Of a stretch of DNA of 64,000 nt, positions 2,314 through 5,839 are shown in pieces. Source of the stretch: an uncultured Lactobacillus sp. (GTDB lineage: Bacteria > Bacillota > Bacilli > Lactobacillales > Lactobacillaceae); the NCBI RefSeq assembly GCF_944327175.1, contig NZ_CALVGT010000014.1, forward strand, positions 45,060 to 109,059, read 5' to 3'. Position numbers and translations under genes: made by a program. Each line of letters starts with the position of its first letter. Position 1 is the first letter of the stretch. The notes under the pieces are model-generated. The model ran no database searches. It saw only the letters and a list, made by a program, of their open reading frames with translations, and was not told where the DNA came from.

Positions 2314-2891
2314 TGCTAGAACTTTCATTTTTCCAAATCAAGAACAGCCGGGAGCCTTTGACCCAGATCTCAGCTGATTTGACTTTTGCTGACGGCTTTT
2401 ACCAGCGGGCCAAGGACCTGGTCTACGAGGTGAAAAGCGCCCACGTGGAAGGTCAGCTCTTTTATGACGAACCATTTGTGACTGGCAATTTCCAAGTGGA
2501 AGCCGATCTTCTGGTTCCGTCCTCCCGTAGCTTGGAAGCAGTGCCATTAAAGCAGAAATTCAGCTTCGTGGAAAATTATTCTGACCATGAACCGACCCAG
2601 GAAGAAAAGGAACTGGGCTTGATGATCATTCCGCTGGACGATGACCGCATTGACGTGCAGACGGCCGTGGAAGACAACATGCTCTTGAATATTCCAAGCA
2701 CGGTTTTGACCAAGGAAGAAGCTGAAGAAGATCTGTACCCAGAAGGGCAGGGCTGGGAAGTCATGTCTGAACAAGACTTCGCCGGCCAGAAGAAGGACCA
2801 GGTCAACCCGGCCTTCGCCCAGCTGCAGGGTCTTTTGGATAAGATGCAGGCTGAAGAAGACAAAGATAAAGCCGAAGACGAAGAAAAATAA
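2313..2891 (+). CDS. yceD: DUF177 (YceD) family protein
   Basis: A 192-residue YceD/DUF177 protein, a family tied to accumulation of 23S rRNA and normally cotranscribed with rpmF (ribosomal protein L32). The body contains a VEGQLFYDEPFVTGNFQVEA-like core and then an acidic low-complexity tail rich in E, D and K over the last 35 residues. The usual family cysteines are not obvious. The ATG overlaps the tmcAL stop. No rpmF follows; a transposon-related region begins within about 100-250 bases. Domain assignment is from pattern and position, not from a strong catalytic motif. Confidence 0.75.
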   Translation: MLELSFFQIKNSREPLTQISADLTFADGFYQRAKDLVYEVKSAHVEGQLFYDEPFVTGNFQVEADLLVPSSRSLEAVPLKQKFSFVENYSDHEPTQEEKELGLMIIPLDDDRIDVQTAVEDNMLLNIPSTVLTKEEAEEDLYPEGQGWEVMSEQDFAGQKKDQVNPAFAQLQGLLDKMQAEEDKDKAEDEEK

Positions 2892-3162
2892 TCTTCCCTT
2901 AAAAACAAGTCTTTTTCCAGAGAAAATTAATCTGGCAGGGGAGCTACTAATTAGTATCAAGTAATATAAAACTATATCGAAAAATATAGCATAATGTTCT
3001 TGTGAACGAAAACGAATTCTATTTAAGATAGAAAATAAGTGTGTTGCACCTATGATTTTAGTTAAAAGATGCAACGCATTTTTTGGTTCTTCTTCAAACG
3101 TATGTTTGTAAATAAACTGAAATACGTGCTAAAATATGCTTGTCGAAAAGAGGTGAAGAAAA
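2892..3162 (+). other. Intergenic stretch before tnpB: hairpin and promoter, possible transposon left end
   Basis: No gene is visible here. GTGTTGCA at 3041-3048 pairs over 8 bp with TGCAACGC at 3070-3077 and a run of T follows, so this is either a terminator or the subterminal hairpin of the transposon left end. A promoter candidate lies downstream: TTGTAA at 3106-3111, 18-base spacer, TAAAAT at 3130-3135. An AAGAGGTG ribosome binding site precedes the tnpB ATG. The DNA is clearly more AT-rich than the housekeeping genes on either side. The exact left boundary of the element cannot be fixed from this sequence alone. Confidence 0.4.
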
Positions 3163-4488
3163 ATGGCAATCAAAAGGACTCACGTATATCGTTTATATCC
3201 AGATGCTACTATGGCTCATGTCTTGGATCAGTGGTGTGACTATCGCCGTTATTGCTACAATAAGGCCCTAGAACTGTGGAATGCGACCTATTCGGAATAT
3301 CGTATGCTAGTCAGTCCAGAGATTCTGACGGAATTTAAGAAGCCAAAAGAAGAACGGCAATTTACTGAAGAGCAGAAGTTATTTATATCTAGATACTACC
3401 CAACCGCAGCACTGATTCAGAAAAAGCTTACGTCAAGCAAACAGTCATGGGAAAAGCAGGTCTCTTCTCGTATCCTGCAGCAAGCATGTGCTGACTTGGG
3501 CAAAGCGTTCAAGAAGTTTGCCAAAGATAAGGCGCTCAAAGTTAAAAGGGGTGCCGGACATCCCGTTTTTCAATCCAAGAAAGCCAAACGCCAAGGCTTT
3601 AAGTTGACTCAAGGCGTGGTGCTCGCAAAGGAAGGCAATCACGGGAAGCTGACCTTGCCCGTCCCAGCACCTTATAAGGGTGAGTGGCATAGCATAAGAT
3701 TTTCTGAAATCCCCAAAAATGCCGAATTTGGAACGGTAAGCTTTTACCGTGAACACGGCCATTACTACATGGCGGTTCCTTACAAGTATGAGACGCCACC
3801 ATACATTCACAAGCATACGGGTAAGAAGACAGGGATTGACGTCAATGTCAGTCATTTCAACGATGCAGAAGGAGAACACTATTTTCTGCACAAAGGAAAC
3901 AATGGCGCCGTCAATCTTGAGAGAGTCTATGAGAACATCAAGCACCAGCAGCGGATTCTGGCAAGAAAGCTGGAAGAAAATGGCCAGATTGCCGGGAAGC
4001 GCTCAAAAAGCTATCAAAAAGCGAGAATCAAGCTTCAGAAGCTTTACGAGCGTGCTCACCGAATGCAAGATGACGCGATGCACAAGTACACGACTCATCT
4101 TGTCAGAGAATATGATGCAATCTGCATTGAGGATCTGAACGTCAAGGGCATGCTAATGAGCCATGTCGCTTCAAAAGGCGTGCACCGTGCACTGTTTGGA
4201 CGCTTTCGCCGCTATCTCGAATACAAGTGCAAGTCAGCCGGGGTCAAATTGGTGATTGCCAATCGCTTTTATCCAAGCACCCAGCGCTGTGCAGTTTGTG
4301 GCAATATCAAGAAAAATGACGAAAAGATCACTCTTTCTGGCAATAAAAAGCATGGCACCAAGCACAATGACTATGTGTGCTACAACAAAAAATGTCCGAA
4401 CTACAACAAGGTTGTAGATCGGGACATGAACGCGATGATGAATCTTGCTTTTTTGATTGATCATCCAAGATACAATAAAGCATTGTAA
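3163..4488 (+). CDS. tnpB: IS605-family TnpB (OrfB), RNA-guided RuvC nuclease
   Basis: A 441-residue TnpB. The family uses a guide RNA made from the element's right end to cut DNA and is the ancestor of Cas12. All three RuvC acidic residues appear intact: D226 in TGIDVNVSH, E323 in CIEDLNVKGM and D421 in VDRDMNAMMNL. The zinc ribbon is intact, with CAVCGN followed by a CYNKKC pair. The helix-turn-helix N-terminus YRLYPDATMAHVLDQW is typical. No TnpA (Y1 transposase) gene is present, so the copy is solitary and could move only with help in trans. Base composition is lower in GC than the neighbours, as expected for transferred DNA. The 3' end runs straight into the structured region at 4489-4968. 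Confidence 0.93.
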   Translation: MAIKRTHVYRLYPDATMAHVLDQWCDYRRYCYNKALELWNATYSEYRMLVSPEILTEFKKPKEERQFTEEQKLFISRYYPTAALIQKKLTSSKQSWEKQVSSRILQQACADLGKAFKKFAKDKALKVKRGAGHPVFQSKKAKRQGFKLTQGVVLAKEGNHGKLTLPVPAPYKGEWHSIRFSEIPKNAEFGTVSFYREHGHYYMAVPYKYETPPYIHKHTGKKTGIDVNVSHFNDAEGEHYFLHKGNNGAVNLERVYENIKHQQRILARKLEENGQIAGKRSKSYQKARIKLQKLYERAHRMQDDAMHKYTTHLVREYDAICIEDLNVKGMLMSHVASKGVHRALFGRFRRYLEYKCKSAGVKLVIANRFYPSTQRCAVCGNIKKNDEKITLSGNKKHGTKHNDYVCYNKKCPNYNKVVDRDMNAMMNLAFLIDHPRYNKAL

Positions 4489-4968
4489 AAAAAGGGATCC
4501 GCAAAGATCCCTACGGGCAGGCTAATGGCCGGAATGCCATCTGTTACTTGAGCAGTTGCGTAAGTGGCTGTTTCGGTGCAGATGGCTCACCGGACGGGAA
4601 GCCGATAAGTTGCTTTGGCAGCGAATCGGTTTCTGCGACCACGCATGCAATTCCTCAAATGGAAGAACATGCGAGAAGCGAGTTCAGAACTCGTGAGACA
4701 GTTCGGTTGCTCATCTTCGGATAAAGGCATTGCTTGCGGCTTCGGCCGTACAGGTGATGTGAGCATATCGAGTGCAGAGATCGCCCACGCTGTCAATGCG
4801 AAAGCTTGGCAGTGAACGCTCGTGAGAGAAATGGAAGCCGGCAGAGTCCTATGTTATGTGCTGGGTATGTTCCAGCCAGGCATGTCGGTGCTGGAAGTAG
4901 AGATATCGATGATGTGATAGTCGCAAAGTTGAATATCTTGACCATAATGTGAACCAGCCGGTATCAAG
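4489..4968 (+). ncRNA. Candidate TnpB-associated guide RNA scaffold (omega RNA / reRNA)
   Basis: About 480 bases without a convincing gene but full of potential stems, directly after tnpB and more GC-rich than the DNA on either side. Visible pairs: GGGATC 4494-4499 with GATCCC 4506-4511; GCCATCTG 4536-4543 with CAGATGGC 4579-4586; CGAGTT 4679-4684 with AACTCG 4688-4693; a TTCCAGC/GCTGGAA pair near 4870-4897; and CTTGACC 4937-4943 with GGTATCAAG 4960-4968 (two-base bulge). TnpB guide RNAs are known to come from the 3' end of tnpB through the right end of the element. The length exceeds the usual 100-250 nt, so only the last part may be the functional scaffold. This role is inferred from position and structure. 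Confidence 0.4.
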
Positions 4969-5014
4969 CGCACATTCTTCCACATTTCTTATAGCACTTG
5001 TTTTTCTATGGGGC

Positions 5015-5043
5015 TTGTTAAAAAGCTAATTTTGGGCTATCCT
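5015..5043 (+). promoter_or_regulatory. Sigma-A promoter of the two-component operon
   Basis: TTGTTA at 5015-5020, a 17-base spacer and TATCCT at 5038-5043 make a good vegetative promoter. It lies about 80 bases before the response regulator ATG and just outside the presumed right end of the TnpB element. Confidence 0.65.
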
Positions 5044-5125
5044 AGAATTATTAAAATATACTTTAAGATTATACTTGGATTCAGCAGACCCAAATTAAAT
5101 CGACAGGATATGAGGGGATAAAAAC

Positions 5126-5839
5126 ATGCCGAAAATTTTAATTGTTGAAGACGAAAAGAACCTGGCTCGTTTCGTCGAACTCGAACTCCAGCACGAAGGC
5201 TATGAGACCGTAGTGGAAAACAACGGCCGCAAGGCTTTGGACCGCGCTTTGAGCGAAGACTTCGACGCGATCTTGCTGGACTTGATGCTGCCAGACTTGA
5301 ACGGTTTGGAAATTGCCCGCCGTGTACGGCAGAGCAAGACCACGCCGATCATCATGATGACGGCCCGCGACTCCGTGATTGACCGGGTATCAGGCCTGGA
5401 CCACGGGGCAGACGACTACATCGTCAAGCCATTTGCCATTGAAGAATTGCTGGCCCGCCTGCGCGCTGTCTTGCGCCGGGTCAAGATCGAAAAGGATGCT
5501 TCAAAGGACAAGCTGCCGCGGCAAAAGGTGGTCAAGTTCAAAGACCTGACCATTGAAACCGCCAACCGGATCGTTCACCGGGGTGACGGCAAGACCGTTG
5601 ACTTGACCAAGCGGGAATACAACCTGCTCATGACCTTGATCGAAAATAAGAACAATGTCGTTGGCCGTGACCAGCTCTTGAACAAGATCTGGGGACCGGA
5701 ATCAAACATCGAAACTAACGTTGTCGAAGTTTACGTACGTTACCTCCGCAACAAGATCGACATCCCTGGCCAGCCATCTTACATCAAGACGGTGCGCGGA
5801 ACCGGCTACATGGTAAGAGACGAGGACGACAATGCCTAA
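5126..5839 (+). CDS. arlR: OmpR-family response regulator (ArlR/LisR/CsrR type)
   Basis: A 237-residue response regulator. The receiver domain (residues 1-120) has the acidic pocket EDE at 8-10, phospho-acceptor D52 in LLDLMLPDLNG, the TAR signature at 79-81 and K101 in IVKPF. The C-terminal winged helix (about 140-233) includes VDLTKREYNLLMTLIENK and the VRTVRGxGY-like end IKTVRGTGYMV. It overlaps the histidine kinase gene by 8 bases, so both are one operon driven from about 5015. In relatives this pair controls envelope stress, adhesion and autolysis; the signal here is unknown. The symbol follows the closest-looking family and is provisional. Confidence 0.85.
   Translation: MPKILIVEDEKNLARFVELELQHEGYETVVENNGRKALDRALSEDFDAILLDLMLPDLNGLEIARRVRQSKTTPIIMMTARDSVIDRVSGLDHGADDYIVKPFAIEELLARLRAVLRRVKIEKDASKDKLPRQKVVKFKDLTIETANRIVHRGDGKTVDLTKREYNLLMTLIENKNNVVGRDQLLNKIWGPESNIETNVVEVYVRYLRNKIDIPGQPSYIKTVRGTGYMVRDEDDNA

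What the first reader, a model, noticed from the sequence alone, without database searches (positions are those of the whole stretch)
3163..4968. Solitary TnpB with intact nuclease residues and a long structured 3' non-coding region
The TnpB has all three RuvC acidic residues and both Cys pairs, so it could still cut DNA. It is followed by about 480 bases with no gene and at least five clear stems. That is longer than known omega RNAs (about 100-250 nt), so it may hold an extended scaffold or a second element.
Basis: partly seen in the sequence, partly recalled or inferred. Interest (0 to 1): 0.7.

Follow-up and report, generated by a model that had tools for sequence, protein, structure and literature searches.

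The report
Oversized guide RNA beside TnpB nuclease
A small DNA-cutting protein carried by a jumping gene in a Lactobacillus-like bacterium is followed by a folded guide-RNA region about 2.7 times the usual length, apparently an enlarged version of the normal guide-RNA frame, which could show how such guide RNAs grow.

Summary
TnpB (3163-4488) has an intact RuvC triad and two Cys pairs; the non-coding region behind it folds better than any of 100 shuffles (z -5.2). The unit is longer than reported: empty sites in two relatives put the element at about 2943-4996, so the RNA runs to the element's right end.

Most likely it is one extended omega-RNA (reRNA) scaffold of about 485-509 nt in an IS607-type element that lost tnpA. 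A relative (82% TnpB) has tnpA, tnpB and the same RNA (530 nt); a third copy is RNA only. Across the three, 11 base pairs changed on both sides (5.0 expected; 0 of 500 shuffles). The terminal pseudoknot known from IS607 reRNAs can form and co-varies among 15 elements; its only 5' partner in the window lies 471 nt upstream, which argues against a second element. Related TnpBs have 3' regions of median 186 nt.

The Rfam core motif (Transposase-1) of most relatives is not recognisable here. TnpB of this clade sits on a long branch nested among shorter-scaffold relatives, so RNA enlargement went with fast protein change. Transcription and cleavage are untested. New variant of a known kind; interest about 0.5.

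The parts
2943..4996 (+). IS607-type element without tnpA; ends accurate to about 1-3 bases
   Evidence: Empty sites in G065 (L074) and G075 (L075): window GGGGA|GCTACT...ATAGCA|CTTG, empty GGAGGACTTG and GAAGACTTA
3163..4488 (+). tnpB, 441 aa, RuvC triad D226/E323/D421 present
   Evidence: dN/dS 0.05 against L052 (one pair, synonymous sites near saturation)
4489..4997 (+). extended omega-RNA (reRNA) scaffold, 509 nt from the stop codon to the fixed right-flanking C; from the first hairpin (4513) it is 485 nt
   Evidence: fold z -5.23; 11 pairs changed on both sides in three copies; same stretch in L052 and L073
4513..4533 (+). first hairpin of the scaffold; loop bases GCUA 4521-4524 are the 5' strand of the terminal pseudoknot
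   Evidence: GCTA occurs only here in 4489-4991 of the window
4536..4586 (+). extra hairpin with two pairs changed on both sides
   Evidence: helix 5
4592..4640 (+). extra hairpin with three pairs changed on both sides
   Evidence: helix 6
4642..4760 (+). further predicted hairpins (4642-4673, 4675-4718, 4727-4760); one pair changed on both sides, in the last
   Evidence: helices 7-11; mostly invariant, so weak evidence for the first two
4788..4814 (+). extra hairpin with three pairs changed on both sides
   Evidence: helix 13
4992..4995 (+). UAGC, 3' strand of the terminal pseudoknot, at the element's right end
   Evidence: in the pseudoknot-free consensus these bases pair instead with 4818-4821 (helix 14)
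4998..5017 (+). predicted guide: first 20 host bases after the right-flanking C
   Evidence: inferred from the boundary and the IS607 rule that the right-flanking base belongs to the scaffold (PMC10711439 section 25)

Best explanation
This is a non-autonomous IS607-type element (tnpA lost) whose TnpB looks like a working RNA-guided DNA nuclease and whose 3' region is one single, greatly enlarged omega-RNA (reRNA) scaffold of about 485-509 nt. As in other IS607 elements, the RNA would be cut from the tnpB transcript, bound by TnpB, closed by a pseudoknot between the first hairpin loop and the last bases of the element, and carry as guide the first about 20 host bases beyond the right end. TnpB would then cut copies of the insertion site that lack the element and so help the element to be kept or copied back. 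The extra hairpins are a lineage-specific enlargement of the scaffold that went with fast change of the protein. Shown here: boundaries, conservation in three copies, co-varying stems, pseudoknot complementarity, nested position on a long branch. Inferred: transcription, processing, guide use, cutting, and that the extra hairpins are part of the working particle.
For: Empty sites and boundaries. Same RNA behind the nearest tnpB, which also has tnpA, and as a third copy at another locus. Fold z -5.23 window, -7.61 L052. 168 pairs, 97.0% of cells paired, 11 pairs changed on both sides against 5.0 +/- 1.5 in shuffles (0 of 500) and 0-2 in slid structures. Loop-tail complementarity in 15 elements: 171 against 147.6 +/- 6.0, 0 of 3000 shuffles; five types, 1 of 120 permutations reaches it, the observed one. 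Only one GCTA in the window's 4489-4991. The fixed base C after ATAGCA in all three long copies at three host sites. RNA differs from L052 at 83 of 485 ungapped columns while synonymous sites of tnpB differ at 71%. Nested on a long stem among shorter-scaffold relatives.
Against: No transcript data. Three copies only, two of them 94% alike, so most of the covariation is one comparison; one measure (further pair types) was reached by 28 of 500 shuffles. The structure was derived from these same sequences. The pseudoknot-free consensus pairs the tail with 4818-4829 (helix 14), without any double-sided change; this excludes the pseudoknot at the same time. Loops and tails were delimited by eye. 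The Transposase-1 core motif of most relatives is not found in window, L023, L073 or L077. The profile of the long form matches the relatives only weakly and in two short pieces (best E 0.016 at the right end, 0.52 near 4815-4842).
Confidence: 0.75

Rival explanations
1. Two pieces: an ordinary short omega-RNA at the 3' end (about 4815-4997) and a separate structured RNA (about 4490-4815) of other function or origin, such as a nested element or intron remnant.
For: The Transposase-1 motif is absent. The 3' part alone can fold back on itself (helix 14). The two short similarities to relatives lie in the 3' part.
Against: The tail's only GCUA partner in the window is at 4521. No Rfam family, introns included, at E up to 1 in window 2800-5200. 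No copy of the middle part (4676-4838) without the rest: covariance model R1 finds 3 of 75 genus genomes, all three known full-length copies.
Confidence: 0.12
2. A decaying element: the RNA was once a scaffold and is now inert, kept only by recent descent.
For: tnpA is gone; the only IS607-type tnpA match in this genome (E up to 1e-5) is fused to an RNase H. One relative keeps the RNA without tnpB.
Against: Open tnpB with intact triad, dN/dS 0.05 against L052; co-varying stems. These speak for long-term selection, not for present activity of this copy.
Confidence: 0.09
3. An exapted, regulator-like TnpB (TldR-like) that acts on the response regulator next door.
For: Solitary gene just upstream of a response-regulator gene (5126-5839).
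Against: The triad is intact, whereas TldRs have lost it (recalled). Two relatives lack the element at this site and other copies sit at other loci, so it is a mobile insertion.
Confidence: 0.02

Closest known systems
IS607 TnpB with RAGATH-18-derived reRNA, ISFba1 (PMC11061315: outline and abstract, sections 5 and 10, passages)
   Same: TnpB of an IS607 element, structured RNA behind it, pseudoknot between an early hairpin loop and the 3' end, G-rich motif before the target
   Different: Its scaffold is 187 nt; here about 485-509 nt. RAGATH-18 is not matched here. Its TAM is AGGAG; here the host bases are GGGGA plus C
IS607 TnpB ISXfa1 (PMC10711439: passages, sections 25 and 26)
   Same: Right-flanking base fixed and part of the scaffold; pseudoknot required for activity
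   Different: reRNA about 150 nt
Lactobacillaceae IS607-type TnpBs with Rfam Transposase-1 RNA (RF03014), e.g. L024
   Same: Same protein family (about 50% identity), same right-end sequence ATAGCA, same first hairpin and pseudoknot letters
   Different: 3' region 181 nt in L024; Transposase-1 motif present there and absent here
IStrons: IS607 or IS605 element with group I intron (PMC4227781, passages)
   Same: IS607-type tnpB beside a large structured RNA, often without ORF A
   Different: No group I intron match here at E up to 1

Membership tests
TnpB RNA-guided endonuclease | full-length TnpB homology with RuvC D-E-D triad | tested here: met
   catalytic identity of the residues recalled
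TnpB RNA-guided endonuclease | RNA-guided DNA cutting | not testable with these tools
   needs an assay
IS607-type element | serine-recombinase tnpA in front of tnpB | tested here: inconclusive
   absent in the window copy; present in the nearest relative L052
IS607-type element | clean insertion with defined ends, empty site in relatives | tested here: met
omega-RNA (reRNA) of IS607 TnpB | structured RNA that ends at the element's right end, next to a host-derived guide | tested here: met
   structure and boundary; transcription not testable
omega-RNA (reRNA) of IS607 TnpB | pseudoknot between early hairpin loop and 3' end | tested here: met
   complementarity and covariation in 15 elements; a competing helix exists
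Rfam Transposase-1 RNA (RF03014) | match to the family model | tested here: not met
   window none at E up to 1; L073 and L077 none; L023 none; profile test negative
RAGATH-18 RNA | match to the family model | tested here: not met
   no match of any Rfam family at E up to 1 in window 2800-5200
IStron / group I intron | group I intron core | tested here: not met
   no Rfam match at E up to 1; splicing not testable

The most novel reading that the evidence does not exclude
The enlarged RNA is a rebuilt class of omega-RNA: the usual core motif has been replaced by a large multi-helix domain that co-evolved with a fast-changing TnpB and adds a function of its own (for example new target-motif recognition, stability, or docking to another cellular RNA or protein), a natural case of an RNA-guided nuclease growing its RNA part.
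Probability: 0.25. Interest if true: 0.75.

Novelty: new variant of a known kind. Interest (0 to 1): 0.5.

Why it matters
How guide-RNA scaffolds grow and shrink together with their nucleases is open. Here related elements of one family span roughly 130-290 nt, 384 nt (L077, next to a tnpB fragment) and 509-530 nt, with the same pseudoknot principle, so the step from a small to a large scaffold can be tested by swapping RNAs and proteins between relatives.

Tried and rejected
A hidden Transposase-1 motif with an enlarged apical loop (suggested by eye) failed a profile test built from 12 distinct motif pairs (30 of 51 loci matched the pattern): 47, 77, 60 and 10 of 300 shuffles scored at least as well for window, L023, L077 and L073. 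Introns or other known RNA families: no match in window 2800-5200 at E up to 1; in L073, L077 and L023 no match within the 3' region. The normal-length relative L041 lacks Transposase-1 too, so its absence is not special to the long form. Spread: no match of the RNA in plasmids or phages; no match of the protein in phages at E 1e-60; none of protein or of a 26-base RNA pattern in viral contigs; plasmid TnpBs at most 47% identical at that limit; in 395 order genomes only the own TnpB at E 1e-100. Covariance model R1 (4676-4838): of 18 sources scanned only window, L023 and L073; 1 of 397 family genomes, the own one; 3 of 75 genus genomes. L077's RNA has no second copy in 75 genomes. Orientation of minus-strand loci was wrong and was redone; lengths come. 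Promoter and terminator scans were at chance level.

Full report
Setting. The genus is Lactobacillus-like by inference: plasmid relatives of the TnpB are in Lactobacillus, Ligilactobacillus and Limosilactobacillus. This TnpB has one match in its own genome (E up to 1e-40).

The protein. The 441-aa ORF 3163-4488 is a TnpB by NCBIfam and Pfam; the RuvC triad and two Cys pairs are present. The nearest relative is L023 = L052 (contig JAEDAG010000008.1), 81-82% identical; dN/dS of that pair by Nei-Gojobori is 0.05, with synonymous sites near saturation.

The element. L052 carries an IS607-type tnpA (MerR-like and Resolvase domains) directly in front of tnpB. The window copy lacks it; similarity to L052 begins only at about 3145, just before the start codon. 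Two relatives, G065 and G075, have the same flanking genes without the element. They place it at about 2943-4996: window GGGGA|GCTACT...ATAGCA|CTTG, empty GGAGGACTTG and GAAGACTTA. The base after ATAGCA is C in the three long copies, at three different host sites, as expected for the fixed right-flanking base that belongs to the IS607 scaffold (PMC10711439 section 25). In 38 of 40 distinct flanks of the wider family that base is G; the other two are L023 and L093.

The RNA. From the stop codon to that C is 509 nt. Fold z-scores: -5.23 for 4489-4990, -7.61 for L052, -3.38 for L077. A third copy, L073 in G065, is 94% identical (482 of 514 columns) and has no tnpB; upstream of it is a short open frame that looks like the start of a DDE transposase, and downstream a nuclease-like gene (both names recalled). 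On the three-sequence alignment A1, 168 pairs give 97.0% standard cells (95.3 in shuffles, 0 of 500) and 11 pairs changed on both sides, against 5.0 +/- 1.5 in shuffles (0 of 500) and 0-2 in slid structures; 'further pair types' was reached by 28 of 500. The structure came from these same sequences, which favours it over the slid controls, and two of the three are close, so most changes are one comparison. Between window and L052 the RNA differs at 83 of 485 ungapped columns, while synonymous sites of tnpB differ at 71%.

One RNA or two. Known IS607 reRNAs are closed by a pseudoknot between an early hairpin loop and the last bases (PMC11061315 section 10); breaking it ruins activity (PMC10711439 section 26). 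In 15 related elements loop and tail are complementary in different letters: GCUA/UAGC, GCUGUA/UGCAGC, UAGCUGUA/UACAGCUG, GUUC/GAAC, GCCU/AGGU; score 171 against 147.6 +/- 6.0, 0 of 3000 shuffles; for five distinct types only the observed pairing of 120 permutations reaches the score. Loops and tails were delimited by eye, and the elements are not independent. In the window GCTA occurs once in 4489-4991, at 4521 in the first loop; L073 also has one, L052 two that lie 15 nt apart. So the tail's partner is 471 nt away, and the whole stretch lies inside one scaffold. Against this, the pseudoknot-free consensus pairs the tail with 4818-4829 (helix 14), which shows no double-sided change and excludes the pseudoknot at the same time.

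How unusual. Of 54 related loci (some near-identical copies; L023 and L077 included, window and L073 not), 51 show the right-end pattern I set; the lengths have quartiles 181, 186 and 193.5, and the 90th percentile is 274. The shortest value (129, L083) is too low because its reading frame runs into the scaffold, and L086's (143) is a wrong first match. L077, a tnpB fragment with about 77% identity, has 384; L023 has 530. Rfam Transposase-1 hits 8 of 10 loci and 2 of 4; the window, L023, L073 and L077 have none, but neither has L041. My search for a hidden copy of that motif failed. A tree of 47 proteins nests window and L023 inside shorter-scaffold TnpBs (support 0.997, 0.948, 0.746) on a stem of 0.82; distance from the clade's ancestor is 1.02-1.06 against 0.30-0.50 for the nine others. 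Of 150 positions that are invariant in eight relatives and agree between window and L023, 24 changed; 71 of the 150 lie in 321-440, the C-terminal RuvC and zinc part, and only 6 of those changed; 16 residues are inserted. Long branches can mislead such trees.

Spread. The RNA is found by covariance model in 3 of 75 genus genomes, G000, G060 and G065, the same three as by DNA search (where at most 4 candidates per genome were scored), and in 1 of 397 family genomes, the own one (a sample, with stricter filters).

Literature. Eight paper searches were run. Their listings showed no TnpB scaffold near 500 nt and no study of a Lactobacillus TnpB RNA, but only open-licence papers are held, lists were capped, and most papers were seen as listings only. 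Fanzor scaffold lengths of 75-150 nt come from passages of PMC11423790, ISDra2's about 150 nt from passages of PMC8612924.

Verdict. The finding is real, and its bolder half, the extended scaffold, is the better supported. It is a new variant of a known kind. What the extra hairpins do is open; my most likely view is that they are peripheral additions to a working scaffold.

Noticed in passing
L101:443-1801, minus strand (G000 contig C22, outside the window): A 452-aa ORF fuses an IS607-type TnpA (MerR-like HTH plus Resolvase) in frame to RNase HI (Cauli_VI plus RNase_H domains). Full-length matches at 95% and 91% occur in G060 and G075, so 3 of 75 genus genomes have it: a kept transposase-RNase H fusion.
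   Followed up: partly
L024-L100, right ends of related IS607 elements: In 26 of 40 distinct insertions an ATG lies 4-14 nt after the right end, against 56 of 320 control windows: these elements seem to insert into Shine-Dalgarno sequences, which fits the published TAM AGGAG (PMC11061315).
   Followed up: partly
window 4682-4707: A stretch of the RNA matches 26 of 27 positions of a site in many relatives (45 of 59 other genomes, E about 1e-4 to 4e-4 each), recalled as 23S rRNA. L052 and L073 match it less well, so it may be chance.
   Followed up: partly
L073 (G065:C117:7156-7673, minus strand): An RNA-only copy of the scaffold, 94% identical, without tnpB, at another locus; possibly a deletion product next to an insertion sequence.
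   Followed up: partly
L052 (JAEDAG010000008.1): The record is titled Faecalicatena absiana (Lachnospiraceae), yet a contig of the same length with the same match coordinates belongs to G060, placed in the window's own genus. The title is probably wrong or the assembly mixed.
   Followed up: no
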